Positions 20,401 to 55,685 of a DNA stretch of 64,000 bases are shown piece after piece. This stretch comes from Heliocidaris erythrogramma (Eukaryota; Echinodermata; Echinoidea; Camarodonta; Echinometridae), in NCBI GenBank assembly GCA_025617745.1, contig CM046853.1, forward strand, positions 1,732,873 through 1,796,872, read 5' to 3'. Both the position numbers and the translations under genes were made by a program. Under the pieces are notes generated by a model that worked only from the letters and a program-made list of their open reading frames with translations, did no database searches and was not told the origin of the DNA. How positions within the stretch are numbered: position 1 is the stretch's first letter; each line of letters begins with the position of its first letter.

Positions 20401-21240
20401 AATCACTTCATTCTTGTATCTTGTATTAAACACACAAAGAAAGTAAGGCATTTGTCTTTTCACTTCCGTAAAAAAATATTTTGCCATTGTTTACTACATC
20501 GTGTGAACGCAATGCCTCAGAATTGTGCATATTTAATTTGGAAGAGGATATCCTCATCTTTGTTTTTTCTCTCTGATGTAGCCATACACCTGAGTCCTAC
20601 AACTTCAGTGTTAGAAGGAGTTGGTGTACATGTTGATGTGATCTATATTGATTATGGTAACAGGGAACGCATCGCAGTCTCTCGTCTACGTCCCCTTCAT
20701 CCTCGCTTCATGACTGACCCTGCTCAGGCTGTATGCTGCAAGCTAGCTAGAGTAAGAACATCTTATCACTTATCTTTGATCATGCATCATGCATTTTGGA
20801 AGCCATCTTAAGCTGGAATGTTTATTATTTGCTTCAGACTACTAATTAGTATTTATGGCCAAGTTTAAGACTTCCTAGTTTCTCATCTCTTGATCCGGGT
20901 TTGTCAAAAATTGGAGGACTCCTCCTCACAATTTAATTCTAGTTTCTCTATGAAAGTCGCAAACATTGGAGAATTTTAAAGTTCATACAATATCATATCA
21001 CTGCTACTACATATATTAGCTACTTTGTTTGATTATTCTTATGCATTTAATGTGAGAAAGAATGATAAACATTGATAAAAAGGCAGAACTGAGAAACTTG
21101 TTATTTTACTTGGCCTAAATTTGTTAAAATTTTCTTTTGTTTGTGTGATGTGTTTTTTCTGCATCTTTGCTATCCCACCTCTTTATGATCTCCATTACTC
21201 TGTCATAGTCTTACTTTTTTTCTTTCTCTCTCTTTCTCTT

Positions 21241-24200: not shown

Positions 24201-27200
24201 ATGTTCTTTGAACTTTGTTGCATGATAAAATATAAGCAAGTACTGATCATTCAGGTAGATGTCATGAAAATATATCAGCCGATATAGCTAAAAAGTGAAG
24301 GAGATATATTAGACTTCACTTTATTAGAAGCCGACATTGCAGTATTCACTTAAAAGAACATTTAAATCACACCCCCCCCCTTTTTATTCAGAATACTGAG
24401 AAAAATTCTCAATACGTTGATTGATACCATGCATCATTTGTTTAAAAACAGACAAGATGATGGTTGCAACAACCAACTTGACGTGCTTGACTTACCTCAT
24501 ACAAAAGAAAGAAGAAAAATTTGATTTGATTTGATTTCTTACATTATAAATAAATAGTATTCTCATGAAGGTAAATATCACAGTAGCCTTAAAATGAATC
24601 TCTGTCTGTTCAAGAGTTCATTTTGTTTTTGTTTTGTCATTTTATTTGATTTTCTCCTTCAGGTCAAGCCAACAGGGAAAGGAGTTAGCCACTGGTCTAC
24701 TGAGGAAACAGACTTCTTCACCCAAATGACGTTTGGTCGTAAGCTTACTGCCATAGTAGTTCGTCAAGCAGGAAGTGATACCAGCAGCTTTGATCTACCG
24801 GCAGTGGACTTACTGTTTGATCATTACATCAATGAAAAAGAAACAAAACTGGTAAGAAAACCTTGTCACAAAATGTCTTATATTGTTGGCTTCCAAGGAG
24901 GCTTTTGTGTCTTCCTCGTTTAGTATAAATAATAATGATAAAAGCTGTTTCTTATATAGCGCCTTACCAGTTACAATGTAATCGACTAAAGCGCTTGCAG
25001 TATTACCCCGGTCACTGGATTCAGTTGCGATTCTGCACATTACCATGCACGTTCTCCACTCCAATGGGGAGCATTCCAGCCAGTCGCCCGTTTTCCAAGC
25101 ACGCACATGCAAATCCAACCACAATGACGTTCGCATCCTACCGGGTACCCATTTAACACCTGGGTGGAGAGGAGCAATGTAGATAAAATGCCTTTCTCAA
25201 GGGGATAAGTGCCGTGCCGGGGTTCGATCCCACGACCTTTGCATTCCCAGTCAAGTGATTAAACCACTCGACTATAACTACGACTTCATCTTTTAAAAAT
25301 GTTTTATTGAATTTGCTGCAGCAATACCCAAGAGTTGTTGAATACATATTAAATGGTAGGTGGGAGACTTTGTGTTAAGTCCTAACAAGGAATTTCACTA
25401 CATAGTGTGACAGTGATCCAACATTTGCACCAGGTTTTATGTGATGCATATATTTATTGTTAGGGCTTAGGTTGCATCATGGTTTAAGGCTAGTGTTTGA
25501 TTTTGGGTTAGTTCTAGGTTAGGTTTAGGGTTCAGTATAGGTTAGTGCTTGGTTCAGGGATGAAGTTCAAAAAGTGTTAAACGGTAAGGGCATTGTCATG
25601 GTAGCATGTGAATTATAACCTGCAACACCCACTTACTATATATTATTTTGATTTTTGTAGATCCATATTTGTTAATAATGCAAAGCCGAAAAGTTATTGG
25701 TTTGTGCTAAATGGGGAATATAGTGGTATTGTTGACTGTTAATTGTGCTCAATGTGTTGTTTTTTTTAGCAGCTTCTTTTTTTTCAAATCTGGGCTGATC
25801 AATGAACTACTTTTGATAATTTGTCTCATTTATATTTGGCCAAGGTTGATGTTGCCAAGTTGATGGTGAGTCAGAAATGTGCCTTGCCAGATGATCAGTG
25901 TTCTACCACAGATTCTTACCACTCTCAGACAACACACACCACTGACAGTGATGTCTGCCACTCACCAAACACTGCCACAGGTAAAACAAAGGAGGACCAT
26001 GTACAAAGTCTTACTGACAGAAAAGAAAATTTATAATTGGAATATTTGCAATAAACAATTGTAGAATAGTGACTTGGTCATACAGGAAATTTTCTGGGTT
26101 TTTTTTTTTTTACTCCTATTACAGTAAAGACATGAGCATTCATAAAGTATTATAAGGAAATCTCCTTACAGCTAGTGTATTAAAGTTTATTGCAATTTCT
26201 TTGTAATCGGGCCCAGCTGGAAAAGGCCAGTTGTCTTAAAGGACATGTTATTCCTGGATGGACTTTTGATATGATATTTTTATGCAAAAGATGATTAAGT
26301 TGATAATTTTCTATTATCTTTCAAAATTTACTTTAGATATCTCCCAACCTACAACACCTCTTCAATCACAAGAGCAAGGCAAGGTTAAGGAACATGAAGA
26401 GGGGCAGCAGGGAAGGAAAGAAAGTGGATCATCAAGTGGTAAAAGGAAGAAGAAAAAGAAGACAAAAAGATCCAAGAGACCCCATGATCATCACATATCA
26501 ACTGAAGACACAGATGCTCCTTATGAAGAGGGTAGAGATACCAGACGTCTTGCAAAGGAGGAGTCTAGGAAGGAGAGCACCTCTGATACACCTGTCTATG
26601 AGAGTGAGTACACCACTGAGAAAAGGGTCCCAGGTCTGTGCAGGACACCTGAGACCAGCTGCACTGAGACTGAAGACAGGCAGTTAAGTCCTGATCCACC
26701 TGCAGGGAAGGCATCACCGGTTGTCATGACAACTGGACAGACCACACCCAAAGATATGATGGATGGAGGGATAAAGGAGACTGAGAAAGGAAGTCAAGAT
26801 CAGCAGGTGACCTGTGGGTCTGAGAGTGCAAGGAGCAGTAGTCCTAATTCTACCAGTGGTGTGTCTTCAGCTAGGAGTTCAACCTGTGTGCCTCAGAAGA
26901 ACATCAAGGACCCTACCAGACCTGGTTTCATCTCTTTCAGTAGGAAGCAAGGAGAGTCCAACATTCCCAACTCACAGAATATGACTAGTCAAGAAGGCAC
27001 CAAAGACAAACCCATGATTGTTGAAACGGCAAAAGAATGCAGTAAAGAGACTGTGACATGCATACCTGCTTCTGCTGAAAGTGACCGTCTCACAGACCTA
27101 ACTGATCAGTTCTTCACATGTGCTGAAGACGCCAGTGAGGCTGAAAGTACTGATCATGAAGTCGCAAAATCCAAGTCTGATGGCCAGCCGAAGTTACCCC

Positions 27201-30200
27201 CTGTTATCTCGAAGGTGGATGTTATTGGCAGAAGGTATGTAGCTCAGAGAACCCTACAAGAAGGAGAGCAAATCCAGTTTGCAATGTCTCACATTGTTTC
27301 TCCTCAGGAGTTCTACATCCATCTGGTCACACCCGATGCCAAGAAAATGGATTACCTGCTTGAAGAACTCAACTCAGCCTACTCAGGCATTGAGGAGGCA
27401 GGTGTCTACAAACCACCAGTCTCGTGGATGTCAATCGGTGCCATCTGTTGTGGGAAGTTTGGTGAGGACAACAGATGGTACAGAGGTGTGGTGGAGGATA
27501 TTAGGGGTGTGAGAGGAGTAGAAGATGGAAGGCATGTCCTGGTGAAATATGTGGACTTTGGCAATGAAGAATGGATTCCAGAACACTTGTTATACCCTCT
27601 AGAGAAGCTTTTCTGTAGCTTAGCTCCTCTAGCTTTCAGGTGTGGACTGGCAAAGATCCTGCCACCGAAGATGGATGATGAAACAGAACAGATAAACAAG
27701 GACAACAAAGGTAATGAATCTTGTAAAGTGAACTAAATGTGACACACATTACCAGGCATATTCATGCAGTATTACATGTTCTAATTGGCATTTCAACATT
27801 ATCATTCATGAAACGAAGCAGACGTTTTCTTTTATCTTTGAGAAGAAAATATTTTCAACCACAAAATAGACCAATGAATTTATATCAGAATGAATATTCA
27901 ATTCAATTCATTTATTTTCCACAACAATAAAATACATCATAGAGTACATAAAAGTACATATCAAATAAACAGTGTATATATAGTATATATAGTGTATATA
28001 TAGTATATACAGTAAATATATAGTGTATGTCATGTCACACAAATGACTCATTGTATTTTGACGCATTAAAGAAAATGGTGTTTGCTCATTTAAGAGAGGT
28101 GCTGCCAGAGACTGAATCATAGCCTTTTCATTCAAAACCTTAAAAATAGCAACTGGAGGTCTTAATCCTCAATTTTCCAGGACCTTGGTGACACGCAGCT
28201 GTGCATGTCCCTTTTTAATATGTCATGGTCTTTATATAATGCTTATTAAACAAGACTTATGAGCCATGTTATAATAAGTTACAAGTTACTACATCATACC
28301 ATGAGTACAAGCATTGTAGGATGTTTGTATAATTGTGTTGAGTTTATTCATGACATTATACTTGATCATTTCTTTTAAATGATTTTAGGTTCATCATCTG
28401 AGTGGTCAGAGGAGTGTAAACGTTCCTTGATTGAAATGGGTCAATTTGAGAAGCTACTTACTGGACACGTCATCCATGTGGGAGGAACGTGGAAGTAAGT
28501 TATCTAACTTGACAAAAATTATATATTAACTTATTACTATTTATGTTTTTGGAAAAATAGTGCTTATATTTACAATACTATAAAAGAAAAATTCATTTGA
28601 TTTAAAAAGTGGCCAAGGAGCATTAAAGAAATGGAATGTGAAATTGTCAAAGATCCTGTCTGGTAGTGTGCATCAGATTTTAGATTATCCAATGTCATGG
28701 GCAGAACGTCGCCTTGATTGTGAACTACAGTCTGTACAGTTCTTTACCCCCCAAAAAAGATCAGAGGTGAAGGTGTAGTGATTCAGTGTACCAGTTTTAG
28801 AGTGTTTAGAAAATATAAATGTTCACTGTAATGAATTCCTTGTAGAAAGTGTACCTGGCTTGAAGTGAGAGACAACTCAGAAGGAGAAGGGGTGTGTCTT
28901 AACCAGAGACTTGTTGATCTAGGACTGGCTTCTTCACATTACTATAAGAAGCAACCTCTTCAAGAACATGGTAAGTGTTTTTTTTTTTTTTACTAAACCA
29001 TAAACATCAGTATCTTATGTCAATTGCTGAGGGTCATTGCATTTCAAGAATGTATGCTTTCCAGATATCCTTCTGAATGTGGGAATGTAATAATGAGATC
29101 TTCTTGTATTGATCAAAAAGAGCACTTTGCTTTTGTTTATCTGACACCCACATTCATCATCAGAAATCTTCTTCCTTTGCTGAAATGAGAAGCATTTATA
29201 ATTTGATTGTTTAGGTCTCTAGAGGTAATCTATTTTGAAGCTTGGTCGTGAGATTCATGTATATGCCAAGGAAGAGCTCTTGTCAGTAATGGCATTAAAA
29301 ACTACATAAATGTTTTTGTGTAGATATGACAGAGAGAGTTTATAGAATGTGGAAGATGATTGTTGATTTGAATGATCTGTATACTAGAAGCTATCCAGCC
29401 TGAACCTTCCCAGTTAGATGGCCCTGATACTAAAGAGCCTGAAGAGGAACCAAAAGCTGAGATGATGGATAATGAGCTTCCATCCCAGGAGGAGGAGGAG
29501 GCAGCAATTCCTGATGACTGGAATCCAATGGTACAACACTTCAGCTCAGAGAGCAATAGTTATGGAGTAGACATGGATGATCCTGGTGTAGCTACAACTG
29601 GAATGAGTGAGGATTGTCTATACTCAAATACATTCTTGGGCCATTCTTTTTATGCCTCCACCTACCGAAAGGTGGTCCTGGAGGCATTATGTGTTTGGGT
29701 TGTCCATCCCCTTTTCTCTTTCTCGATATAATTCAAGAATCACATGACGTATGAACTTCAAACTTGGTGCTAGTATGTATCACCATAGGAAGACGATCTG
29801 ATTAGATATTGGGGTACATAGGTAACAGGTTAAAGGTCACAGAGGTCAATTTCTGAACTTGCAGGTTTTAGCCTTGTTAATGCTATGTCTCAAGAACCAT
29901 ATCCATTAACTTTGAACTTGTTTAGTATGTATCACCATAGGAAGATTATCTGATTAGATTTTGGCAAATGTAGGTCAAAGGTCATGGAGGTCATTCTAAA
30001 ATTGCAGGTTTTTGCCTTGTTAAAGGCCAAGTCCACCCTAACAAAAAGTTGATTTGAATAAATAGAGAAAAATCCAACAAGCATAACACTGAAAATTTCA
30101 TCAAAATAGGATGTAAAATAAGAAAGTTATGCTATTTTAAAGTTTTGCTTAATTTCGCAAAACAGTTATATGCACATCCTGCTCAGTATGCAAATGGGGG

Positions 30201-33200
30201 AACCAGTGACGTCACCCACTCACTATTTCTTTTGTATTTTATTACATGAAATACGAAATATTTTGTTTTTTCCTTGTTATAATGTGAAACAAGGTTTGAT
30301 TCCTCGCTGAACATGTGTAATTGCCATTGTTGCAACCTATACACAATTCAATGAGAGCTTCCTAATTGTGAAATCTACAGAAATTAGAATATTCTATATT
30401 TCACAGTGTTATGATTGTTGGATTTTTCTCTATTTATTCAAATCAACTTTTTGTTAGGGTGGACTTGGCCTTTAACACTCTCTTGAACAATTTGAGCCAT
30501 TAAATTCAACTTGCTTCCTAGTGAGACAAACTGATTAGATTTTTGTTCATGTAGGTCAAAGGTGACAGGTTATAGAGGTCATTATATATGAAATTAATGT
30601 TTTTGTACCTTGTTATCACCATATCTGTTGAAAACAAAGCTACAATCAAGCCGTTGTTTAATTTTGAAGCTACATAGATTTTATCATTGAATTCCTAATT
30701 TATAAAGCAAATAAAAAAATGTGTAAGACCAAAGTTTTATCAGTACCTTCTTTATCCACAATATCCTAAATGTTTTCTTTTTCTCAACTTCTAAATCATA
30801 GAATCTACTATTGAAGGGAGAGTGTGCAAATATTATGCAGCCGGCAAACGTTGCTATAAAGGACCCAACTGTCCCTTTGAACATCCAAGGCGTGGTAAGA
30901 CAAGTTTTCAACACAAGAATTGCATGAGAGAATCATCCTCAGCCTTGCCTCAATTTTTGCCTGTATCTTTTGATTGATATTTATTCATTTTCATGTTCAG
31001 CGCTTGACAATTTACTAATATATTACAGTTTACCAAAATATATGCATTGAATTCCCTTCTAGATATTTATTCCTTGTTGAATTTTCAGAATAACAATTTT
31101 GGTAGGTTCTGTTCATTAACATTATTGAGTTCTGTTGAAAATCTGTTAACCCAATGCTGCATGTACTTTAACTTGATACAGCTAGCACATTCCAAGACCA
31201 CCGCCAGCAAACTCCTCCCTTCCTGCACGATTGGAACCACTCAACACCCTGCTCTGATCCTCCCCGGCTACACCATTCCCGTCCCTACCACCACCAATCC
31301 CCTCACTCTCATAACCATTCCCCTCCCTACCATAACCCTTCCCCTCACTCTCATAACCATTCCCCTCCCTCTCATAACCATTCCCCTCCCTCTCATAACC
31401 ATTCCCCTCCCTACCACCACCAATCCCCTCCCTACCACCACCAATCCCCTCACTCTCATAACCATTCACCTCCCTACCACCACCAGTCCCCTCACTCTCA
31501 TAAACATTCCCCTCCCTACCACCACCAATCCCCTCACTCTTATAACCATTCCCCTCCCTACCACCACCAATCCCCTCACTCTCATAAACATTCCCCTCCC
31601 TACCACCACCAATCCCCTCAATCTCATAAACATTCCCCTCCCTACCACCACCAATCCCCTCAATCTCATAAACATTCCCCTCCCTACCACCACCAATCCC
31701 CTCACTCTCATAAACATTCCCCTCCCTACCACCACCAATCCCCTCCCTCTTATAACCATTCCCCTCCCTACCACCACCAATCCCCTCACTCTCATAAACA
31801 TTCCCCTCCCTACCACCACCAATCCCCTCAATCTCATAAACATTCCCCTCCCTACCACCACCAATCCCCTCAATCTCATAAACATTCCCCTCCCTACCAC
31901 CACCAATCCCCTCACTCTCATAAACATTCCCCTCCCTACCACCACCAATCCCCTCAATCTCATAAACATTCCCCTCCCTACCACCACCAATCCCCTCACT
32001 CAAATAAACATTCCCCTCCCTACCACCACCAATCCCCTCACTCTCATAAACATTCCCCTCCCTACCACCACCAATCCCCTCAATCTCATAAACATTCCCC
32101 TCCCTACCACCACCAATCCCCTCACTCCCACCAACAATCCCCTCCCTACCACCACCAATCCCCTCCCCTCAACTCTCAGCCCCCTTCCAGTCCTTTGCGT
32201 AGGTCCCTAGACGCAATCCATTGGAAACACAATGTCCCACATTTCATCACAACCCATGGAGAGGGTCCCGACTCCCTCACATCACCTTACTGTCATGGTC
32301 CTTCCAGGTTCTCATCGCCCCAAGGTTACCAGTCACATACCACATTATCCTTGCTCAACTCATTATAAAGACACCTGCAACAAAAGAAAGAACCAGCGGT
32401 GTTTCAGTTTGCTAGAGAGAAACCTAAGCATGTTTTGGGCAAGTGGTTTCTTACGCCTCCTACTCAAAACTATGTCCCACCCATGCTAAAGCCTAGAGAT
32501 TATTTCTTCTCGTCTCATGCAATACAGGACCATTACCATTCTGGTCCATCGTACCATCTTTTCTAGAGCAAACTTATACGATAGAACCTACCAAAGAAAG
32601 ACTTTTTAAAAATTTTGTTCTCTACTTTTTGTCTTCAAAATTATGAATAAAAAGGAAGATATAAAAGAGAGAATGTAGACTCTGATATCACAGTCTATAG
32701 ATGAGTTTGCATGAATCTGAATATCTGTTTTCTGTAATTGTTTCACTATAGTTGCTTCATAAATTTGATTTACAAATGACACTTTTGTAAGAACAAATCA
32801 TGCCAAACTGTAAAAATGCAGCCTTTATTTGTTTATTTACACTGGAAATAAATCTGTTAACACCAACATTAAACAATTATTTATCATTTCCTGTTATACT
32901 ATCTCCTGCAAATTAGATTTTCACTTCAACGATATTTTCACCTTCTGTCTCTGGCCTCCTCAAGACTTCCCATCACACTTCCCCTTGGGTGTCTTAGATC
33001 TGTCCTGGGAGCTAACAGGGTAGCAAAACCCACCCTAAACCCCTTGCTGGGGTCCTCAGAGCTGACTTGGGTGCACACATGCTAGAATATTTTGCCCCTA
33101 CACCATCCCTCCCTGTGATTCTTCTCAGTTGTCCTTCGTGCCAGTATGGTAGCTATACCCACTCCCCCTCCCCTCTGGGTTTCTCTGCACAATTATGGAT

Positions 33201-36200
33201 ACTAGCATGGTAGCAAGATCCACATATCATCCCTCCTCCCCTCCCATGGGTTCCTTACAGCTGTCCTGGGTGCCAGCAGGGTAACAAAACTCTTCCTACA
33301 CCCCTCTCTTGTGGGTTCATTAAAGCTGTCCTGGGTGCCAGCAGGGTAACAAACCACTCCCTCCACCCCTCTCCTGTTGGGTTCCTCAGAGCTGTTATGG
33401 GTGCCAGGTTGTTAGACCCACCTGTCACCCCTCCACCCCTCCTATGGGTTCCTGTCCTGGGTGCCAGAAGGGAAGCATGAATCTGCTTTTTGCTCCCAGT
33501 CTGGTATCCAGGTAATTGTTGGTGTTGTAATTTGTTGTTTAACTTTTTTGCATTTTTTGTTGCTTTGCTTTTCTTTTCTATTGCAATGACACAATGTTTG
33601 TTTTGAAGCAACAAATGTTTTCAAGCACTAGACATACTGATCAAAGAAATTTGTCTCATCTGATGGAATATTTTTACATTTCTGTGCTTTATGGAATGCT
33701 TTTTAATGTCCTTAAATAGTTTGATTTATTGTAATTATTTTATTCTGAGACTTTCTAACAAATAAATTAAAACTGCCAGTGTGCAGATACCTACTTTTAA
33801 TTGTGAATGTTGTCTTATTAATAAAAAGAGAAGATTGTGTTTTGTGCCCAACTGAAAGTTGCCAAGAGGGATGGAAGCTTGATCACAAGAAAAGTTTAAC
33901 CTTTCCTTGCCTTCTTAGCAAGATGTTTGAGCAGTAATTAGAAATGGGCTAGAGCATTATGTTATGAGATTACAAATAGCTACATGATCTCATTACAGGC
34001 AAAGAAAATCTGGAGCAGACTGAAGTGTTCTGGTGCAATACATCTGTGAGCTTACCTAAGGCGGGTCACTGGGTGGCCTTAGAGGTGACTGCTGTACATA
34101 CATCAATCCATTTCTGGGTCCAGTTACCATTTGGTCCTAAGCCACTAGATCAGGCCCAGAAGGAATGGAGTACTTTGAACCAGCTACCAGAGGAGAGGAA
34201 GGATGATGGAGAAACACTTTCAGCTCTTCAAGATTCTATTAAGTATGTATGAAGGTGGTAGATTGAAAGTAAAGAGGACCAACATAATGTGAACTTTCTT
34301 TCTTTTGAAGATTATTCAGATTTATTCCCATTTGGTATCTTTAACTTTGTCTTTTTGACAAATTAAGAGGTGTGTAGATTTATTTGTTACTTGTATTGAA
34401 AATTTTCAATGATTGTATAATTTCTTTCCAGTCATTTATATTCAGCCAATGCTTTGTATCCGTTGCAAATATTAAAACATTTCCTCTTATCTGGCAATAT
34501 TCTATGTAATGACTGATAAAATACATTTTTGACAGTGATATCTACCAGAAGTCATACACACGTCGTGAGGATTTATCTCTGCTGGCGTTAGGAGAAATAG
34601 TTTGTGCTCAGTTCAGTAAGGACGACAGCTGGTATAGAGCAAGGGTCGTTGATGTCGATGCAGAGGCTAACACAGTACAGGTAAGAAAACATCACTTGCT
34701 AAGCTTCAAGTCTAGCATTAGTGTAACCCCATCATTCCATTATTGTCTTGTTATCATATTCATATATTCTTTGCTGACGTTTCCTTTGTCCTTGATTCCT
34801 TCTCTTACTATTTGTTATTTCTCTTATATCTTTAAATCTCCCACCACCCTCATTCTATATTCCATACCCATGAAATCATTGGTGATAAAATTTTCCAGAT
34901 TTCAAACCTTGTGTATAATTTTAGCTTACAAGCTTGCACATCTTTTTCTGAACCTAGAGGTGTTATATAGCCTGAAGACAACTTTAATATTGTTTTATTT
35001 TGTCGGTATTCTATGTTGCCTATGGTAAATACTGTAAACATGGAATATTTCGCGATGTGGAAATTTTCGCGCATTTCGCGCAGTATGAAATGTGCGCGAA
35101 AATAAAAACATGCAAATATTTTTGTTTATGTATTCTTTTGCGCATGAGCCTAGCGCATCGGCGAAATTAAAAACACGCGAAATTCACTTTACTCAGCCGA
35201 ACGCGAAAAATTAATCCCGCGAAAATTTCCACTTTTACAGTAAATGGTTGGTCAGATCAAATCCATCCAGCTTTGCCTCAGTTTCTCCATCTACCATTCT
35301 TTGTAGGTATTCTATGTGGACTATGGTAACTGTGAGTGGTTGGTCAGATCTAGAATCCGTCCAGCTATGCCACAGTTTCTTCACCTACCATTCCAAGCTG
35401 TGGAATGCTTCTTGGGAGGACTAGAACTCGTCAAACAGACTTCACTCAAGAATAAAGATCTTGATAGGTAATCTCCATTTTCTATTTTATCTACATGCAT
35501 AAAGTAATCAAACACCAAATGAAAAGTGTAGCTCAAATAAGATGAAACTTTTACAAATTACAGCCCTTTTTGTCATTGTATATTTTGTAAGTTAAGTTAT
35601 AAAACAAGGAAAGCAAATTACATTTCTCTTTTCATGTTGTTTGAAAACTTTGTTTTGATAGGTTATCAGACCAAAGTGTTGAATAGTACCTTTGAATGTT
35701 ATGAGTAGACATGTATCTTTCAATTTAACTCAAAACACTATCTCATCAGTTATATTTCAAGATTAGTACCAATGTAGTAAGTTCGGAAGTGGGTTAGGCC
35801 ACAAAAAGGGACGGACACAGATTGGTTGTAGTTGTTGATATTTATTTTGTCGTCACGACAAAAAACCCTGCAAAAAATAATTGTAATACATTTGATTAAT
35901 ATCAACTCGTAATCATTTACATTATCATTTTTTATTAAACCTCATCGGTATAGGAATGGTGGGCACCACACCAATCGATTAGAACCCTATGCTCTACTCG
36001 GCTCATAGTTCCGCAACCATTTCTACACCCATGAGGTTTCACAAGACATTTGCAGGTTATTCTCAATCTAACTCTTTACAATAAATCAATTTTCCTTCAG
36101 CCATCAATTTTAGACTCGTACTCCTCGCTAATACTCGTTGAATTTAATCAACTACAATTGAACTCTACTCATGATACATTGTGATAATTTGGGATAGAAA

Positions 36201-39200: not shown

Positions 39201-40159
39201 ATCTTTCTTGAAAGTGTGAAGTCCTGAAAAGGACTGTAAACCAGATGAGAAGGCTGAGAGTGGAGAAGACTCGATGTTTCGGACAGGTTGACTCTCCGTC
39301 ATCAGGAAAGATTACTTCTTCACTCTCTGAATTTCTATCTCGCCTTTCCTTTTCTTCTCCTCTCAACTTTTCTCCACTTTCTTCTTCTTACTCAATAGTC
39401 CTCTTCAGGACCAACCACATGGTGAACCGTAAACCTTCTCCACGTTGAAGACTATTTCCTTTGTGCTCTGTCTGTCAATCAATATTAATAGCTGTGGATA
39501 GGTACAGATTCAACCAAGTTGCATTTGAAGTATTCACTTGTGTAGGAGGGGATGAAAGAACTACATGTTCATATTGTAAATTGTAGAACACAATACCATT
39601 TCCACTGCAAGCTCATTTATATCATGATTTTGGTTCATAATACAAATTCTCTTTCAGCCTTACACATGTACCACAGCATATCATAAATGAACTATAATTT
39701 TAACATTACTGATCTGTCTTGTTAGCCATTTGTTTATGTTCTACGCTTTTTTTACATTTAAACAGATATACAATTTTCTGTACAGCTCTTAAATACTCTT
39801 ATTTTATTGGTTCCTGGTAGTTATGAAGTGGATCAAAGGTGACTAGAGGAAGCACATAAACATTACTAATTGACTCAATCAACTTCTGTTTGAATATAAT
39901 TGAATCTGTTGATATTCCTGTACATCATAAAATTTTGAAGAATACATAGATATACTTCAAGATGCGCAACACATATGACATAACTTTGTTTTTCTTTTCT
40001 AGTGATGGAGATATCCTTCATGTTGAAATGTATGACACGATTAGCTCCAAACATGTGAACATTGGGGATGCTCTAGTGAATGCTGGCTTTGCAAAACGCA
40101 CCCAGACTCACCAGACAACAGAGCGATGTGCTACTACGCAGGATATGGCTAAAAAGTAA
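11424..40159 (+). CDS. Multi-Tudor, CCCH zinc-finger protein (whole gene, about 19 coding exons)
   Basis: The exons join without phase conflict: 11470-11592, 16436-16577, 17066-17235, 18156-18374 (or 18413), 18724-18905, 20013-20122, 20582-20751, 24663-24851, 25845-25980, 26337-27710, 28389-28494, 28846-28970, 29388-29606 (or 29585), 30802-30894, 33999-34242, 34536-34680, 35307-35467, 38956-39012, 40003-40159. The product is about 1,373 residues: coiled coil (1-90), Ser/Thr-rich linker, Tudor 1 (about 240-470), Lys-rich basic stretch (about 516-529), Tudor 2 (about 777-1010), acidic linker, CCCH finger (1097-1116), Tudor 3 (about 1125-1360). Each Tudor is the extended type with a flanking SN-like fold. 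Such proteins bind dimethyl-arginine tails of Piwi proteins in germ granules. Coiled coil + CCCH + Tudor recalls Drosophila Krimper. No RING or MYND was seen. Seen: domains and phases. Inferred: piRNA role. Confidence 0.85.
11436..11552 (+). promoter_or_regulatory. Upstream ORF overlapping the Tudor start codon
   Basis: An ATG at 11436 opens a 38-codon ORF in another frame that ends at the TGA at 11550-11552, beyond the main start at 11470. If the 5' UTR is as drawn, ribosomes must leak past it. It could lower translation of the main ORF. Confidence 0.4.
11470..11592 (+). CDS. Tudor gene, coding exon 1 (N-terminal helix)
   Basis: The exon begins at an acceptor (CACACAG|T, 11424). The frame has a TAG at 11440-11442, so ATG 11470 is the first usable start: MSSSRKKHIVAEMKKILEQR, then KAELEFNEREII. 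The sequence is a charged amphipathic helix suited to a coiled coil. The donor is GAG|GTAAGA, phase 0. The next intron is 4.8 kb because it holds an LTR element. Confidence 0.75.
11875..12793. mobile_element. DNA element inserted in the 5' LTR
   Basis: About 919 bp that interrupt the LTR. CTTTA stands on both sides (11870-11874, 12794-12798), and the LTR sequence continues across the gap. The element ends show a weak inverted match (TAGAGCAC / GTGTTCTA), and an internal pair of imperfect inverted copies (AAGCAGACGATGTCC at about 12096 and its partner around 12577-12620) adds foldback character. The minus-strand ORF at 11980-12210 has no known domain. The class is uncertain. Confidence 0.5.
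12982..14040 (+). CDS. Gag-like protein of the LTR element
   Basis: The first 90 residues or so resemble a retrotransposon Gag/capsid N-terminal region, with a pattern of short helices (SLEWLGGFQNYLQASGVTLA, FGLLLYLRGDALQDLF, YEVAVKAFSNYF). The rest is unusually acidic, with Asp runs and a loosely repeated ERxxDGLxxDCQxxxDAAQ motif. No zinc knuckle, protease or polymerase was seen. It is part of the 11613-16059 fossil, not a host gene. Confidence 0.6.
   Translation: MDLPPPFIFRLCETTPRSLEWLGGFQNYLQASGVTLASQKFGLLLYLRGDALQDLFKELAPSVSSQDGHDNYEVAVKAFSNYFNSTPAVEEESLVTSYDGDDDDDEVYYINYPLSRSSIEAENISEVSSHEGDDDFKIKEHERLCDGLDQDCQLEPEAAQETDNRYEGMSEHDDTERHHDGLEKDCQQEFDAAQSMLSLLAKHEREPPGNSRDEDIERQRHCLDDDCQPNTAVQDDLLPEKQDPEPPDIPDHFKVPEPEVDDIDMIERQYDSPDDRQLDAAQIPLPPRKGDDVSRNLNNIYREDEWADDSNATPKRHPDSAPDDEQSTCSVPEIITTRDPTIDPRSQTRNRA
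16436..16577 (+). CDS. Tudor gene, coding exon 2 (coiled coil, end)
   Basis: It encodes TLGQLKSLLKETDKKKFLKA then FPSVSVKMDKSLTALMMI, continuing the charged helical region from exon 1. The acceptor is CTTAG|A and the donor TCAG|GTATGC. It ends in phase 1. Confidence 0.8.
17066..17235 (+). CDS. Tudor gene, coding exon 3 (linker)
   Basis: Low-complexity acidic Ser/Thr linker (DESSTDGASDRDTAEACDTP...). The acceptor is CTTAG|A and the donor CCAG|GTGAGT. Enters in phase 1, leaves in phase 0. Confidence 0.75.
18156..18374 (+). CDS. Tudor gene, coding exon 4 (Ser-rich linker)
   Basis: Ser/Thr-rich linker (STSTPSSSSHQSVSPSKESN...). It has two possible in-frame donors: CACAG|GTAATG at 18374 and ATACTG|GTATGG at 18413. 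The longer form adds 13 residues (VMQQANQTVQEIL). Both leave phase 0, so both keep the frame. Confidence 0.7.
18724..18905 (+). CDS. Tudor gene, coding exon 5 (Tudor 1, first strands)
   Basis: It contains LPVGMRIEVVVSEVVSPSIF followed by WIQPTQ, the conserved opening of an extended Tudor domain (V.V..V.SP..FW.Q). The donor is GATTAG|GTGAGA, phase 2. Confidence 0.85.
19039..19600 (-). mobile_element. piggyBac derivative with remnant transposase N-terminus
   Basis: Bounded by TTAA (19035-19038, 19601-19604), with ends CCCTTTGAATCCGG and inverted ...GGGTTCAAAGGG, the CCC...GGG start typical of piggyBac. It is 562 bp, much too short for a full element, and lies in the Tudor gene intron after exon 5. 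Confidence 0.75.
19228..19376 (-). pseudogene. Truncated piggyBac transposase N-terminal ORF
   Basis: It reads MARKTCTADEARAILLGDSV then EDIDDLEYCQSSDFEGEIDT, matching the basic-start, acidic N-terminal style of piggyBac transposases (MxRRxxTxEEAxxxLxxSDSE). The ORF is open through its own stop after about 49 codons, and no catalytic DDD domain follows. It is a deletion derivative. Confidence 0.6.
19773..19850 (+). other. Cryptic or alternative 78-nt exon inside Tudor 1
   Basis: It lies between an acceptor (ATAG|C) and a possible donor (CTATT|GTAGAT). It is 78 nt, fits the phase-2 junction on both sides, and encodes SSLDELAELVQSLYDSSAEL then RENKQLL, a helix much like the one that follows the first Tudor strands. 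Tudor 1 is already canonical without it. Reading past the donor meets TAG at once. Confidence 0.35.
20013..20122 (+). CDS. Tudor gene, coding exon 6 (Tudor 1, barrel start)
   Basis: It encodes RKYYSSVMKLPPFQPKVGMY then CCACFTNDDCWYRARIIG. The motif C.A.F..DD.WYRA is the signature of the Tudor barrel. The donor is ATAG|GTTTGT, phase 1. Confidence 0.85.
20582..20751 (+). CDS. Tudor gene, coding exon 7 (Tudor 1, binding core)
   Basis: It carries VDVIYIDYGNRERIAVSRLR; YIDYGN holds the aromatic-cage and Asn positions that bind methyl-arginine in Tudor proteins. It ends with QAVCCKLAR and donor GTAAGA, phase 0. Confidence 0.9.
20752..24662. other. 3.9-kb intron, no gene seen
   Basis: AT-rich intron with a (CT)n microsatellite at about 21220-21275, a C-run at 21846 and short GTTT repeats near 24090. 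The stretch 22078-22188 can be read as an exon but is not needed for the protein. No clear transposon was seen. Confidence 0.6.
24663..24851 (+). CDS. Tudor gene, coding exon 8 (Tudor 1, SN-like part)
   Basis: It encodes VKPTGKGVSHWSTEETDFFT then QMTFGRKLTAIVV, the usual W...A..FF segment after a Tudor core. It joins exon 7 directly in phase 0 (donor CTG|GTAAGA). Confidence 0.9.
24925..25287 (-). mobile_element. tRNA-derived SINE, minus strand
   Basis: Read on the minus strand it has a tRNA-like head (GTCGAGTGGTTTAATC, then GGGATCGAACCCCGGCACGG), a body with GTTAAATGGGTACC and GGAATGCTCCCC, and a tail GGCGCTATATAAGAAACAG followed by AT-rich repeats. It shares the body motifs and tail with the SINE at 60356-60725. 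It sits in a Tudor gene intron. Confidence 0.75.
25845..25980 (+). CDS. Tudor gene, coding exon 9
   Basis: It encodes VDVAKLMVSQKCALPDDQCS and a Ser/Thr/His-rich linker. The VN..L...G.A-like start closes Tudor 1. The acceptor CCAAG|G has a weak polypyrimidine tract, so the boundary is less certain. Ends in phase 1. Confidence 0.7.
26337..27710 (+). CDS. Tudor gene, coding exon 10 (large; basic linker and Tudor 2)
   Basis: This 1.37-kb exon is the largest in the gene. It begins with a linker holding a Lys/Arg cluster (GKRKKKKKTKRSKRP), which may be a nuclear-localisation or RNA-binding patch, then a long Ser/Thr/Glu-rich disordered part. It ends with Tudor 2: IVSPQEFYIHLV, then CCGKFGEDNRWYRG, and VLVKYVDFGNEEWIPE. 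YVDFGN keeps the aromatic and Asn positions. The donor is AAAG|GTAATG, phase 1. The plus-strand reading continues upstream of 26337, but the splice phase argues for the start given. Confidence 0.9.
27896..28145 (-). repeat. AT-rich repeat, possible LINE 3' tail on the minus strand
   Basis: GAATTGAATTGAATATTCAT-like sequence (minus strand) next to a degenerate TATATAGTG array (about 27970-28028). It resembles a LINE 3' tail in the reverse direction. Family not identified. Confidence 0.3.
28389..28494 (+). CDS. Tudor gene, coding exon 11 (Tudor 2, SN-like part)
   Basis: It encodes GSSSEWSEECKRSLIEMGQF then EKLLTGHVIHVGGTW. The acceptor is TTTAG|G and the donor GGAA|GTAAGT, phase 2. Confidence 0.85.
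28846..28970 (+). CDS. Tudor gene, coding exon 12 (Tudor 2, end)
   Basis: It encodes KKCTWLEVRDNSEGEGVCLN then QRLVDLGLASSHYYKK; LNQRLVDLGLA is the standard closing motif of an extended Tudor domain. Donor CATG|GTAAGT, phase 1. Confidence 0.88.
29388..29606 (+). CDS. Tudor gene, coding exon 13 (acidic linker)
   Basis: Glu/Pro-rich linker (EAIQPEPSQLDGPDTKEPEE...). Two phase-1 donors are possible: CCTG|GTGTAG at 29585 and ATGA|GTGAGG at 29606. The second fits the donor consensus better. Confidence 0.75.
29647..30640. repeat. Tandem 130-160 bp intronic repeats split by a MITE
   Basis: It starts with a hairpin-like ATGCCTCCACCTACC...GGTGGTCCTGGAGGCAT, then repeats with shared blocks (AGTATGTATCACCATAGGAA, TCTGATTAGATTTTGG, AGGTCAAAGGTCA.GGAGGTCATT, GCAGGTTTTTGCCTTGTTA). 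Three units are recognisable, the last two separated by the TTAA MITE at 30024-30471. Confidence 0.65.
30024..30471. mobile_element. TTAA-flanked palindromic MITE, copy 2 (internally deleted)
   Basis: Same ends as at 151-757, with TTAA at 30020-30023 and 30472-30475. It is 448 bp because most of the right half of the palindrome is missing, so it is less able to fold. Inserted in the tandem repeats of a Tudor gene intron. Confidence 0.85.
30802..30894 (+). CDS. Tudor gene, coding exon 14 (CCCH zinc finger)
   Basis: It encodes STIEGRVCKYYAAGKRCYKG then PNCPFEHPRR. The four zinc ligands are spaced C-x8-C-x5-C-x3-H, the standard CCCH type that usually binds RNA. It ends in phase 1 (CGTG|GTAAGA), which allows two fates: splicing to 33999 (Tudor 3) or to 31182 (repeat exon). 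Confidence 0.9.
31182..32368 (+). CDS. Alternative 3' exon of the Tudor gene: His/Pro/Ser/Tyr-rich 14-residue repeats
   Basis: An acceptor at ACAG|CTAGCAC (31182) fits the phase-1 donor of the CCCH exon and opens a frame beginning ASTFQDHRQQTPPFLHDWNH. Then come about 17 copies of a 42-bp repeat encoding SPPYHHQSPHSHKH with Asn, Gln or Tyr variants, then SPPLNSQPPSSPLRRS..., to TAA at 32366-32368. The frame stays protein-like for 65 more codons after that stop (to TAG 32564-32566), and a poly(A) signal AATAAA lies at 32646. The simplest reading is an isoform that keeps Tudor 1, Tudor 2 and the CCCH finger and replaces Tudor 3 with a low-complexity tail. A phase-neutral donor (TTGC|GTAGGT, 32198) would instead allow a 339-residue cassette. 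Confidence 0.6.
31285..32165. repeat. 42-bp minisatellite
   Basis: The unit CTACCACCACCAATCCCCTC plus ACTCTCATAAACATTCCCCTCC recurs about 17 times, with shorter variants at the start. Since 42 is a multiple of three, all frames on both strands stay open, which explains several overlapping ORFs. The minus strand is rich in G runs (GGGGATTGGTGGTGGTAGGG), so it could form G-quadruplexes. Confidence 0.95.
32646..32651 (+). terminator. Poly(A) signal of the alternative 3' exon
   Basis: AATAAA about 80 nt after the TAG at 32564 and 280 nt after the TAA at 32366. It supports transcripts ending here. Confidence 0.45.
32985..33475. repeat. Degenerate 65-75 bp tandem repeat
   Basis: About six units built on GTCCTGGGTGCCAGCAGGGT, AACAAA and CACCCCTCTCCT.TGGGTTCC. 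It lies in the intron between the alternative 3' exon and the Tudor 3 exons; no coding role is seen. Confidence 0.65.
33999..34242 (+). CDS. Tudor gene, coding exon 15 (Tudor 3, first strands)
   Basis: It encodes GKENLEQTEVFWCNTSVSLP, then GHWVALEVTAVHTSIHFWVQ. V.V..V.....FWVQ opens an extended Tudor domain. The acceptor is TACAG|G, phase 1; the donor is TTAA|GTATGT, phase 2. Confidence 0.88.
34536..34680 (+). CDS. Tudor gene, coding exon 16 (Tudor 3, barrel start)
   Basis: It encodes DLSLLALGEIVCAQFSKDDS then WYRARVVDVDAEANTVQ, the C.A.FS.D..WYRA Tudor signature. Donor CAG|GTAAGA, phase 0. Confidence 0.9.
35006..35306 (+). pseudogene. Decayed duplicate of Tudor 3 core exon, split by a MITE
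   Basis: GTATTCTATGTTGCCTATGG at 35006 and, beyond the MITE, AATGGTTGGTCAGATCAAAT at about 35243, then CCATCCAGCTTTGCCTCAG and CATCTACCATTC, closely match the start and middle of the real exon at 35307. The duplicate reads VFYVAYGK where the real exon reads VFYVDYGN, so the cage Asp and Asn positions are lost. It is broken by the MITE at 35032-35240 and would be out of use. Confidence 0.75.
35032..35240. mobile_element. TA-flanked palindromic MITE with CGCGAAA-rich arms
   Basis: CTGTAAACATGGA and TGGAAATTTTCGCG at the left pair with CGCGAAAATTTCCACTTTTA then CAG at the right. TA lies on both sides (35030-35031, 35241-35242), as for Tc1/mariner-type elements. It sits inside the duplicated exon. 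Confidence 0.75.
35307..35467 (+). CDS. Tudor gene, coding exon 17 (Tudor 3, binding core)
   Basis: It encodes VFYVDYGNCEWLVRSRIRPA then MPQFLHLPFQAVECFLGGL; FYVDYGN is the methyl-arginine-binding core. The acceptor is TTGTAG|G; the donor GATAG|GTAATC is weak, phase 2. Confidence 0.9.
35468..38955. other. 3.5-kb intron, no gene recognised
   Basis: It holds a four-unit 18-bp array (AAGTTAATCAAATAATCT, about 37434-37500) and a GC-richer patch near 37300-37400. Sharp composition changes suggest an old inserted element, but I could not identify its ends or any domain. The minus-strand ORF at 37701-38012 has no recognisable motif. Confidence 0.5.
38956..39012 (+). CDS. Tudor gene, coding exon 18 (short)
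   Basis: 57 nt encoding RKLFEELMMDKVLVGHVIS, the F.EL..DK.LV..V. segment of the SN-like fold. The acceptor is TTGCAG|G and the donor CTAG|GTAAGA, phase 2 to phase 2. Confidence 0.85.
39067..39446. mobile_element. Foldback element with arms of about 140 bp, in the last intron
   Basis: The left arm starts AACGTGGAGAAGGTTTACGG; the right arm is its inverted copy ending CCGTAAACCTTCTCCACGTT. Pairing continues through a purine-rich stretch (left) and pyrimidine-rich stretch (right) almost to the centre, with an insertion of about 30 nt near 39210. It carries no transposase. Confidence 0.75.
40003..40159 (+). CDS. Tudor gene, last coding exon
   Basis: It encodes SDGDILHVEMYDTISSKHVN then IGDALVNAGFAKR, the closing motif of an extended Tudor domain, and ends TTQDMAKK with TAA at 40157-40159. 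The acceptor is TTCTAG|T. Confidence 0.9.
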
Positions 40160-40934: not shown

Positions 40935-41322
40935 TAGGGTTAGGGTTAGGGTTCAGACTACGTGTAAGTTAACCATATAGCATGTACACTATATCACTTT
41001 CATGTAACAAAGAAGGGTTAGGGTTAGGGTTCAGACTACCTGTAATTTCACCATATAGCATGTATACTATATCACTTTCATGTAACAAAGAAGGGTTAGG
41101 GTTAGGGTTCAGACTACGTGTAATTTCACCATATAGCATGTATACTATATCACTTTCATGTAACAAAGAAGGGTTAGGGTTAGGGTTCAGACTACCTGTA
41201 ATTTCACCATATAGCATGTATACTATATCACTTTCATGTAACAAAGAAGGGTTAGGGTTAGGGTTCAGACTACCTGTAATTTCACCATATAGCATGTATA
41301 CTATATCACTTTCATGTAACAT
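40935..41322. repeat. 78-bp minisatellite with telomere-like GGGTTA motifs
   Basis: Five units of 78 bp, each starting GGGTTAGGGTTAGGGTTCAG and continuing ACTACCTGTAATTTCACCAT, ending in ACAAAGAA. The units differ at only a few bases. Both strands read as ORFs, because 78 is a multiple of three. Confidence 0.95.
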
Positions 41323-41857: not shown

Positions 41858-42462
41858 AGGCCAAGTCCACCCTAACAAAAAGTTGATTTGAATAAATAGA
41901 GAAAAATCCAACAAGCATAACACTGAAAATTTCATCAAATAGGATGTAAAATAAGAAAGTTATGGTATTTTAAAGTTTCGCTTAATTTCGCAAAACAGTT
42001 ATATGCACATCCTGCTCAGTATGCAAATGAGGGAACCAGTGATGTCACCCACTCACTATTTCTTTTGTATTTTATTACATGAAATACGAAATATTTTAAT
42101 TTTTCCTTGTTATAATGTGAAACAAGGTTTGATTCCTCGCTGAACATGTGTAATTGCCATTGTTGCAACCTATACACAATTCAATGAGAGCTTCCTAATT
42201 GTGAAATCTGCAGAAATTAAAATATTCTATATTTCACATAATAAAATACAAAAGAAATAGTGAGTGGGTGATGTCACTGGTTCCCTCATTTGCATACTGA
42301 GCAGGATGTGCATATAGTTAACTGTTTCGCGAAATTAAGCGAAACTTTAAAGTACCATAACTTTCTTATTTTACATCCTATTTGATGAAATTTTCAGTGT
42401 TATGCTTGTTGGATTTTTCTCTATTTATTCAAATCAACTTTTTGTTAGGGTGGACTTGGCCT
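41858..42462. mobile_element. TTAA-flanked palindromic MITE, copy 3
   Basis: 605 bp, with ends as in copy 1 and TTAA at 41854-41857 and 42463-42466. Near full-length palindrome. Downstream of the Tudor gene. Confidence 0.88.
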
Positions 42463-42466
42463 TTAA

Positions 42467-45233
42467 TAAACAAGAAATTTGATGACGAATGTGTTAAAAA
42501 AAATATAATGTGAATAGATGAAGGATTTTTTATTTTTTTGTGTTCATTTGCAAGAAAATCATAAAAGAGTTTGGGAGAATTTTCTATTGGTGATTGTACA
42601 TGTACAAAGCAACCAACAATAATCAGTGATATTCAGAAAATTTTTTGCTTTATTTATTTTTGAAAAACCAAACTGAACACCTTTATGGTTAATTGTGAGA
42701 TGATTATTATTCATCAAGAGGATATGATATTTTGTTGACCTTAAAATGTTTTAAACTTAAGTAGATGTACGGGTAAGTGACAACATGTGTCATTTTCTTT
42801 CACTCTTTGAATACATGTAACAGACGTTACCTACACTGCCTTACTAAAATGCAATAAGTTTACTGTTTGAAAGTTTGTTGACTTTGTAGATACCGGTATG
42901 TGATTACTTTTGAAAACTTTTGTACATACATATGCCAACGAAACGGACAAAACTTACCCTGATTTGAACATTTAATTGATATTATCTGTATGTATTTCAT
43001 TCTGGTTTGTTTTTCCTTGTTACATGTGAAAAGGTTTACTTCTGTGTATGTCATGATTATGTCAGCTTTATGTACATGAAATCACACTATGAAATAGTGG
43101 TGTTTGTAAAATATATCTACTTCTTGAAAGATGCTTGGTATATCTGTTTATGTTGTGCTAGGAACCTAAGAGATTTGACATTTTAGTCTGCTAATAAGAC
43201 TATGGTATTAACTATAATACACTTTCTTATTGTTTTCGTTGGTGTAGTATCAGTCATGTGTGTCTAGAAATACTCATTTCCTTGACCTGTAATCTAGCAT
43301 GTGCATGTTGTGTGTTAGATATCTGATATATGCATTTACACCATTAGAAGTTTAAGAGCTTCTATAATTGTGTATGTAGAGATTAAGAAACACCTTATTT
43401 GTTTGATATGTCAAATTATGTTTTGATCAATTTCTTTGTTTTTCAGTATTATTTGTACATTCTAAAACAAAATCTTTCATATGTACTCTAAATTTCCTTT
43501 TTTGTGTCGGAAGGAGAAAAGCAACAGCGGTGCTCTTTATTAAATATATATATTCTTGAGTTTTCAAAAAAGTTTCACAAAAGTTGTTTGTATTGTTGTT
43601 CACAGCAGTTGGCTTTGATTTATTTTAGATGTGAGAAAAATAAGCCCAGATATTTAACATAATAGTAGAATAACTACAGTACAGCCCACATTGTATCAGT
43701 CCATCGGTAGAGTAGTAACCTGTGCAAAAAAAAGTCCACCAAGCGATGTAGGCCTTTACATCACTGCAGGGGTGAGGTATTTAATCTTTTAAATGGATGG
43801 GAAGAGGGTTTGTGATAGGACATGATGAGAGGAGATAGTGGGCACTTTTGGGAAGGGAGAGAGGTGAAGTATGATAGAGGGAGAGAGAGAGAGAGGGAGG
43901 GAGAGAGAGGGGAGTATAGAAAGGATATGGAGTAAGTGGGAGAAAGAGACACAGGAGATAGATGGAGGAGAGAAAAAGAGGGAGAAATTGACGGAAGAAA
44001 AAAAAATACATCTTTGTCAACAGCAATATATTTTGCAGGATTTCACATCAGACCCTTCTCTTCAGGTCCCATGATCATATCGAACTTTAAATAACTAAGT
44101 CCTCATTGTGATGGTAAATAAAAATGTTTTATATTGGTACTCAATAAAATTATATCAATCCAGCTCAAATTTCCGAATTTTTTTGATATATAACTTTAGA
44201 TAAGGGAGGAATGAGCAGTTCACATAATCTAGCATTTTAAGTACACTGGTATCAGTTGTAGTAAAATACAAAACATTAAACATTGGCCAAAATATCGGTA
44301 GATGGAGCTAGAAACCATTAACAATCTGAGGAAGCCTCCCCTTGGCTATGCCAGTAACAGTAATGTCATCATACCTGGCGAGAAGCATCCGTAATGTGCC
44401 AATTATCAAGCAGACTATCTCGCAGAGCAGGAATTCAAAACCACTCATAGTGATAACGACTTGGGGAACGCCCTGATAAAATGTCAAAGGTCAGAGACCC
44501 GATTGCGCTCCCATCTGCGATAATGCATCACTGTGATTATTTGCATGCACAGAGGCTATAAGAAAGTTGGTATTTCACAATACAATCCAAAAACAAATAT
44601 TTCTTGGCCCCTGTCTTTACGTTTACCGTTGAAACGAAGAACTAGTAACTGGTGATCGTGAAAATATATCAGCCCGGTTTAACACGATATCTTCGCTTGT
44701 CAAAAAGCAAATGAATTAGGAATAGTGAAATCCATTCTACTGTCCATCCAAAATACCAACTTCAAAATGATAGGCTATATAGATCAAGGAGTTATTAGGA
44801 GGGCTACACAGACTCAGATAAACAGGTCAATGCCATGTAACATATATAAAATTTAGGTGTTTGGAAAATGGAAATTATAAGTGATGAATATGCACATCAA
44901 ATCTCTTTGACTTATAATAACTTATTATTTTGTATGTATTCGAAACACAACTTCTGTTTATATTCCTTTATCAGACATACGTATCATATACTAGATAGCT
45001 TGCATTCCTCGTGTATTCGTAATGTAACATTCACTGCTCCAAAACAAAAACATTCTTCTCTTAAAGGAATACGACATTTTATTTTCAAGAATTTAATTAG
45101 GTCTCCGCGACCTAGTTGTTTATGATATCATAATAGAATTTAGCAATGATTTTGTATAAAGAGAATAAGCAGTTAGCAATCAGCTCTCAGCCATTCAATC
45201 CATCTCGTCACACTTTCAATCAATCAGACCATC
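42467..45233. other. Intergenic, no gene recognised
   Basis: AT-rich, with a GA-rich purine tract at about 43870-43990. A short stretch at 44320-44470 reads protein-like on the minus strand (CEIVCLIIGTLRMLLARYDD) but has no recognisable family or clear splice sites. Confidence 0.5.
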
Positions 45234-54666: not shown

Positions 54667-55685
54667 CTGAAAGAAATACAATGGCACATTGTGAGATTTT
54701 TTTTTTCAATCGTTTTCATATCTAATTTCTGATTATTAAGAACCTTTCCAAAAGAAAAACATTCAAAGTACTTTAAACACTTTTTTTTATACCTTCTGTT
54801 TTTAGAAGTTAGAAATATTGTCAATAACATCAATTCCCCAACATCTGCACAAAATGATAACTTACTATCTGCTGTCTTTTGTGCATTGTAAGGAAAAATA
54901 GAATCTTCAGTTGTTTTTCCAAACCTGCAAATCAACTCTTTGGTACTGTTTATTTTTAATTTGTCAATTTTCCATTCATACAAAAATTTGAGCACTTGGC
55001 TTTGATCAGTACTGATTTGAAACAAACATAAGTTGGCTCTTAGAAAGACACCACACTGTTAAAGTGCAATCAGACCTTTGTAAAAAGCTGATATGCGTGA
55101 AAGGAGGAAGATAAGAGAAACCAGAAGGTGAAAGTTTGAAAAAAATAAGAAAAAGAATAAGTTATGAATGTTTAAATCTCAAATCTCAAATTGGCAATTT
55201 GGTGAATCGTTTACGACATATTCACTGGTCAACTCTCCCATTTGTGGTAATCAAAATCATTAAATTCCAGTTTTCTCCTGAGCACCTTTTCCCTCAGGGC
55301 AGTACTAAAAATATACTGTAGATCTAGCCTATTGTTATACATGTAGGTCCTCTGAAAATAAAAAGATCCTACTGAGTTATACATTTTGAAAAAGTGAAGT
55401 TTTAGTCATTTTGTGTGTAGGAGAGAATGGGAAAGTTGACCTGCTACAATGTATCACAATGACTGTATGGCAAATTTCTTTCAAACGTTCACCATCCGGA
55501 TTTTATTTTTCTCCTTTCACTCAAATCATCTAATTACCAAGGTTGGATTGCCCTTTAAGATTTCAAGTTTTCAACCAATCTTCCAATCATGTGATAGAGG
55601 TGTCTGCCACCAGTTTCAACAAAGATATCATCACCCTTTCAGAATTCTGAAGAGAAAAATCATTGAATGTATTACATATACTTAC

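What the first reader, a model, noticed from the sequence alone, without database searches (positions are those of the whole stretch)
31182..32566. Alternative 3' end of a Tudor/CCCH gene built from a minisatellite
The splice phase of the CCCH exon fits this exon exactly. Only that frame gives non-repeat flanks that look like protein (QDHRQQTPPFLHDW..., SSPLRRSLDAIHWK...). The repeat tail is rich in His, Pro, Ser and Tyr, the composition of condensate-forming proteins, and it would replace Tudor 3 in a protein family that builds germ granules. A 42-bp repeat can change copy number without breaking the frame, so tail length may vary between individuals.
Basis: partly seen in the sequence, partly recalled or inferred. 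Interest (0 to 1): 0.8.

Follow-up and report, generated by a model that had tools for sequence, protein, structure and literature searches.

The report
Intronic minisatellite inside a Tudor gene

Summary
The array is real: a 42-bp unit, 20.3 copies, 93% matches, 0% indels, 31314-32165. It lies in the intron between a CCCH exon (30802-30894) and exons of a Tudor domain (from 33999), which join directly in phase. The phase-1 fit is true but weak. Acceptor 31182 outscores 4 of 7 acceptors of the gene model, yet ranks 16th of 108 AGs in the intron, and acceptor 31063 opens 382 codons through the array in another frame. Three of six frames are open across the array. The flanks up to the TAA do not score as coding; the post-stop segment 32369-32563 does, marginally. 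Repeat variants show a marginal silent-site excess in frame A (P 0.036 raw, 0.099 cleaned). GC edges near 31179 and, in one segmentation, 32556 look exon-like. Most likely this is an ordinary, very strand-asymmetric intronic minisatellite (0.57). A real or former exon is not excluded. No RNA or animal genome was available to decide.

The parts
28389..28494 (+). exon completing Tudor 2 (first part)
   Evidence: acceptor score 8.0, donor 7.59; in-frame translation
28846..28970 (+). exon completing Tudor 2 (second part)
   Evidence: acceptor 4.66, donor 9.8
29388..29606 (+). acidic linker exon
   Evidence: coding-like (0.41), acceptor 3.37, donor 4.87
30802..30894 (+). CCCH zinc-finger exon, ends in phase 1
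   Evidence: Pfam zf-CCCH_4 E 1.8e-6, 28 bits, above its cut-off when scanned alone; 22.4 bits, below the cut-off of 24.6, inside the spliced protein; PDB CPSF4 E 2e-4
31182..31270 (+). non-array 5' flank of the array, open in frame A; GC-rich from about 31179 on
   Evidence: 31184-31288: codon score -0.66, reached by 96% of noncoding windows; open by chance 0.46; GC edge
31271..32165 (+). minisatellite, 42-bp unit built of two 21-bp halves; almost no G on + strand
   Evidence: TRF; blocks; 2 G in 895 bases, 692-bp G-free run
32166..32368 (+). 3' flank, frame A open to TAA 32366-32368
   Evidence: not coding-like
32369..32566 (+). post-stop ORF in frame A, ends TAG 32564-32566; marginally coding-like
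   Evidence: codon score 0.026, reached by 1.5% of all and 5.7% of GC-matched noncoding windows; 0.038 with other training; no Pfam match, best PDB match E 1.6
32646..32651 (+). AATAAA, possible poly(A) hexamer
   Evidence: chance of A(A/T)TAAA within 300 nt is 0.41
33247..33407 (+). second minisatellite (65-bp unit) in the same intron
   Evidence: TRF
33999..34242 (+). exon starting Tudor 3, joins the CCCH exon in phase 1
   Evidence: acceptor 7.39, donor 3.31; spliced reading; Pfam TUDOR E 7.5e-24 on the spliced protein
34536..34680 (+). Tudor 3 exon
   Evidence: acceptor 3.71, donor 11.02
35307..35467 (+). Tudor 3 exon
   Evidence: acceptor 9.07, donor 4.72
40003..40159 (+). probable last exon, end of Tudor 3 region, stop at 40157-40159
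   Evidence: in-frame spliced reading; its acceptor was not scored; TDRD1 structure match of the spliced protein E 1.6e-20

Best explanation
The region is an intronic, noncoding minisatellite in a multi-Tudor/CCCH gene. The array grew by unequal exchange or slippage of a 42-bp unit (inferred from its structure). It appears open in several frames because the unit is a multiple of three and nearly free of G, which makes stops rare (shown). The usual transcript joins 30894 to 33999 and skips it (shown in silico only). Any effect would be on transcription or splicing of the long intron (inferred, weak).
For: The direct 30894-33999 join gives a CCCH finger followed by a Tudor domain in one open reading. 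Three of six frames are open in the array. The 5' flank and the 3' flank up to the TAA do not score as coding. The acceptor ranks 16th of 108 and a near-equal one opens another frame. No good donor lies in the block: best of 26 GTs 2.96, against 3.31-11.02 for the seven donors of the gene model. A TAA lies in frame. Another GC-rich minisatellite lies in the same intron. Zero indels is shared by other arrays of the window, such as 3481-3652, 40936-41321 and 54355-54642.
Against: Acceptor 31182 (6.21) outscores 4 of the 7 acceptors of the gene model. Distinct repeat variants show an excess of silent changes in frame A (P 0.036; 0.099 after removing block hybrids) and of third-position changes (0.113 corrected). 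The post-stop ORF scores within the exon range: best + frame, best of six frames, tied with one - frame. The GC block starts at the acceptor (31179, interval 31143-31201) and in one segmentation ends at 32556 (32487-32603), near the TAG. The very low codon score of the array itself does not count either way: the likely coding 45-bp array also scores low (-0.63).
Confidence: 0.57

Rival explanations
1. Alternative 3'-terminal exon, but ending at TAA 32366-32368: the CCCH protein gains a 395-residue H/P/S/Y-rich tail and lacks Tudor 3; repeat copy number sets tail length.
For: Phase-1 fit and 395 open codons; acceptor better than 4 of 7 of the gene model; AATAAA at 32646; marginal frame-A bias of repeat variants.
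Against: Acceptor 16th of 108; flanks up to the stop not coding-like; another AATAAA inside the array at 32003 and hexamers common by chance.
Confidence: 0.2
2. A former or currently disrupted terminal exon 31182-32566: the frame once ran to TAG 32564-32566 and is now cut by the TAA at 32366, or the TAA is an assembly or allelic difference.
For: Post-stop 65 codons open (chance 0.026) and exon-like in codon score; GC edges at 31179 and 32556 near acceptor and TAG.
Against: 3' flank before the TAA not coding-like; 20% of 310 noncoding 398-bp windows with GC of at least 0.43 have a frame with at most one stop; the recursive segmentation puts the right edge at 32326.
Confidence: 0.15
3. Internal cassette exon 31182-32324 (phase 1 in, phase 1 out) inserting a 381-residue disordered linker between CCCH and Tudor 3 without losing Tudor 3.
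For: GC change point at 32326; GT at 32325 leaves phase 1, as exon 33999 needs.
Against: Donor CCCAAG|gttacc is weak (2.85; weakest donor of the gene model 3.31); the edge is not stable between segmentations.
Confidence: 0.08

Closest known systems
Intronic (noncoding) VNTR / minisatellite
   Same: Tandem 42-bp unit with hybrid blocks in an intron; a second array nearby
   Different: Extreme strand asymmetry (692-bp G-free run); copy-number variation not tested
Exonic coding VNTR such as MUC1 (60-bp unit; passages of PMC12776774)
   Same: Unit length a multiple of three, long open frame, P/S-rich product
   Different: No evidence of expression; flanks up to the stop not coding-like; in-frame stop before the supposed end
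Krimper (single extended Tudor plus CCCH) and TDRD1 (multiple extended Tudors plus MYND), as listed in PMC12147562 (passages)
   Same: Host gene combines a CCCH finger with TDRD-type Tudor domains; Tudor 3 best matches a TDRD1 structure
   Different: Several Tudors with CCCH between the second and third; MYND not specifically looked for; orthology not tested

Membership tests
Coding VNTR exon | Repeat unit a multiple of 3 with no frame-breaking indels | tested here: met
   42 bp, 0% indels; also true of other arrays in the window
Coding VNTR exon | Coding-like non-repeat flanks in the same frame | tested here: inconclusive
   5' and 3' flanks no, post-stop segment marginally yes
Coding VNTR exon | Purifying selection among copies in that frame | tested here: inconclusive
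   P 0.036 raw, 0.099 cleaned, 0.113 corrected column test; low power: the likely coding 45-bp array gives 0.96
Coding VNTR exon | Present in spliced RNA or protein | not testable with these tools
   no RNA or proteome data
Alternative terminal exon | Functional acceptor and poly(A) signal | tested here: inconclusive
   acceptor 6.21, above 4 of 7 of the gene model but 16th of 108 in the intron; AATAAA 32646, chance 0.41
Minisatellite | Head-to-tail array of roughly 10-100 bp units | tested here: met
TDRD-type gene | Tudor core domains | tested here: met
   TUDOR above cut-off in 20335-20808, 26270-27733 and the spliced Tudor 3 (E 7.5e-24)
TDRD-type gene | SNase-like extension of the Tudor core | tested here: inconclusive
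   Pfam SNase 14.1 bits, below cut-off 21; TDRD1 structure matches over query 99-245
Krimper | Orthology to Krimper | not tested
   no animal protein collection available

The most novel reading that the evidence does not exclude
A germ-granule-type Tudor protein has an alternative or cassette exon made of a 42-bp minisatellite, so a copy-number-variable H/P/S/Y-rich disordered segment replaces or precedes Tudor 3 and could tune condensate behaviour.
Probability: 0.2. Interest if true: 0.6.

Novelty: new member of a known kind. Interest (0 to 1): 0.22.

Why it matters
If the exon were real, it would show a minisatellite recruited into a piRNA/germ-granule-type scaffold, with length polymorphism that could be genotyped and tied to condensate assembly. 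As it stands it mainly shows how a multiple-of-three, G-free array yields long open frames in several registers and can imitate an exon.

Tried and rejected
Exact pattern scans for a dispersed repeat of the gene's introns (genome contigs; viral contigs) and for the 42-bp repeat (viral contigs) gave 0 matches. Relative searches in viral contigs with the post-stop peptide and the first Tudor 3 exon gave 5 and 1 pattern matches, none confirmed. By their descriptions these collections hold viral, bacterial and archaeal DNA, so this says nothing about conservation in animals. No whole genome is held for the window. Rfam: 0 matches at gathering score. Bacterial promoter/terminator scan: uninformative here. 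Antisense reading: the - strand ORF 31182-32168 is open but no better supported. Short introns that would remove the TAA: the best frame-keeping pair scores 3.57 in total, rejected as weak. Flanks as decayed repeat copies: 31274-31287 aligns to the unit (P 0.04); 31182-31267, 32171-32300 and 32210-32566 do not (P 0.32, 0.19, 0.42). Codon score of the array as evidence: dropped, because a likely coding array also scores low. Splice-site matrices were approximate, human-like and recalled; codon training used 798 or 1091 codons of exons I judged real, so scores are rough.

Paper searches. Only the listings were read, as titles and starts of abstracts, and some were capped (for example 12 of 176 and 10 of 8,649). 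None of the listed entries pointed to a Tudor gene with a minisatellite-encoded tail; this is not a claim that none is in print. Passages were seen in PMC12925329 (not used in the argument), PMC12147562 and PMC12776774.

Changed on checking: I added the acceptor comparison, the sub-cut-off CCCH score and the low power of the selection test, weakened the claim on frame A in the flanks, and added. These cut both ways, so I left the odds as they were.

Full report
What is there. Tandem Repeats Finder gives a 42-bp array at 31314-32165, 20.3 copies, 93% matches, 0% indels. Each unit is two related 21-bp halves, reading mostly HHQSPHS and HNHSPPY or HKHSPPY in frame A; a few blocks look like hybrids of the two halves. 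In 31271-32165 the + strand has 2 G in 895 bases, and 31487-32178 is a 692-bp run without G, the longest such run in the window.

Host gene. The CCCH exon is well supported: zf-CCCH_4 at E 1.8e-6, 28 bits, above its cut-off when the exon is scanned alone. In the spliced protein the same model falls to 22.4 bits, just below the cut-off of 24.6. CPSF4 zinc fingers are the nearest solved structures. Tudor matches lie upstream at 20335-20808 (E 4.8e-8) and 26270-27733 (E 1.7e-21). Joining 30802-30894 directly to 33999-34242, 34536-34680, 35307-35467 and 40003-40156 gives one open reading, with TUDOR E 7.5e-24 and TDRD1 as best structure match, E 1.6e-20. So the finding lies in the intron 30895-33998. 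I modelled only the 3' half of the gene. The species is not identified, and orthology (TDRD1, Krimper or other) was not tested.

An acceptor precedes 31182 and phase 1 leads into frame A, as stated. The acceptor scores 6.21. That is above 4 of the 7 scored acceptors of the gene model (3.37, 3.71, 4.66, 5.11) and below 3 (7.39, 8.0, 9.07). Among the 108 AGs from 30955 to 34000 it ranks 16th. Acceptor 31063 (5.78) also fits phase 1 and opens 382 codons through the array in another frame; 31197 and 31186 open 390 and 341 codons. The 26 GTs from 31182 to 32700 score at most 2.96, against 3.31 to 11.02 for the seven donors of the gene model, so a terminal exon is likelier than a cassette if there is an exon at all. 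AATAAA occurs at 32646, but a hexamer AATAAA or ATTAAA lies within 300 nt of 41% of positions, and one AATAAA lies inside the array at 32003.

Is openness informative? Little. Three of six frames are open across the array, and 0.997 of 5000 shuffled units have at least one open frame. By chance the 5' flank would be open at 0.46, the 3' flank at 0.10 and the post-stop piece at 0.026. Of noncoding 398-bp windows, 4.1% of 2212 have a frame with at most one stop, rising to 20% of the 310 with GC of at least 0.43; the piece 32166-32563 has 1 stop in frame A and 2 and 4 in the other + frames.

Codon content. A codon model from 1091 codons of this gene's exons scored left-out real exons at -0.15 to 0.41, median 0.16, in 24 windows; in 2 of the 24 the true frame was not the best + frame, so the method is fallible. 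The 5' flank scored -0.66, a value reached by 96% of 2820 noncoding windows. The 3' flank up to the TAA scored -0.257, reached by 34%, or by 56% of the 594 windows with GC of at least 0.42. The post-stop piece scored 0.026, reached by 1.5%, or by 5.7% of those 594. Frame A was the best + frame in three of the four pieces scored there; in 32210-32404 another + frame was slightly better. With training on 798 codons, frame A was no longer best in the 5' flank, while in the post-stop piece it stayed best of all six frames (0.038). In an earlier version that skipped stops, some minus-strand frames scored higher in the 5' and 3' flanks and one tied in the post-stop piece. In sliding 120-base windows frame A leads the + frames in those starting at 32164-32224 and 32374-32434, and not in those starting at 32254-32344. 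The array itself scores very low (-1.62 in frame A), but so does the 45-bp array that I think is coding (-0.63), so this is no evidence.

Selection among copies. Of 17 distinct variants in 41 blocks, 6 are silent in frame A where 2.94 are expected (P 0.036); the other five frames give P of 0.33 or more. After I removed variants explained by block hybrids, which was my judgement, 4 of 11 are silent against 1.98 expected (P 0.099); one minus-strand frame then gives P 0.13. A column test gives 11 of 20 variants in the frame-A third position, P 0.113 after correction for three phases. The other six arrays tested gave no signal (P 0.33 or more), but had 0 to 6 variants; the likely coding 45-bp array is among them (0.96), so the test has little power. 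The two commonest variants (N/K and H/Q) change the amino acid.

Composition edges. Recursive segmentation puts GC edges at 31179 and 32326, with a second island at 32939-33512. Local segmentation puts the left edge at 31179 (31143-31201) and the right edge at 32556 (32487-32603). The left edge coincides with the acceptor. The right edge coincides with the second stop in one segmentation and with a weak phase-1 donor (32325) in the other. This is the most exon-like feature and keeps the exon readings alive. The second island in the same intron shows that GC-rich blocks occur here without an exon being argued.

Verdict. The array and the phase fit are real, the end coordinate is wrong, and the evidence for coding is marginal. 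I favour a noncoding intronic minisatellite (0.57) over a terminal exon ending at 32368 (0.20), a former or disrupted exon to 32566 (0.15) and a cassette exon (0.08). Condensate function, replacement of Tudor 3 and variation between individuals are inference only. Coding VNTRs with frame-preserving units are known (passages of PMC12776774), so even the positive case would be a new member of a known kind.

Noticed in passing
31487-32178: 692-bp run without G on the + strand, longest in the window; by eye the - strand unit carries runs of G that could form two-tetrad quadruplexes (not computed).
   Followed up: partly
1740-1913 and 3481-3652: Two 15-bp arrays whose units are reverse complements of each other, about 1.6 kb apart (units, complementarity by eye).
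   Followed up: no
53983-54705 (-): 240-aa ORF in which a 45-bp array (54355-54642) encodes PNITTDLPDFILPTL repeats before what looks by eye like a membrane span and cytoplasmic tail; CD34_antigen E 0.0018, below cut-off. The unique part scores -0.003 in that frame, best of six. A better candidate for a truly coding minisatellite.
   Followed up: partly
about 30030-30475 and 41900-42480: Dispersed repeat whose copy in the intron before the CCCH exon has inverted ends (aaaggccaagtccaccctaac...), like a MITE; seen by eye.
   Followed up: partly
40936-41321: 78-bp array, 4.9 copies at 98%, containing AGGGTTAGGGTTAGGGTT, a telomere-like motif.
   Followed up: no
3070-3318 and 63709-63999: Two near-identical ORF stretches (GPPGGHMYHFSNFGSPTPKDDSYQVWLN), a dispersed repeat (by eye).
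   Followed up: no
12976-14040: 354-aa acidic ORF without a Pfam match, upstream of the Tudor gene.
   Followed up: no
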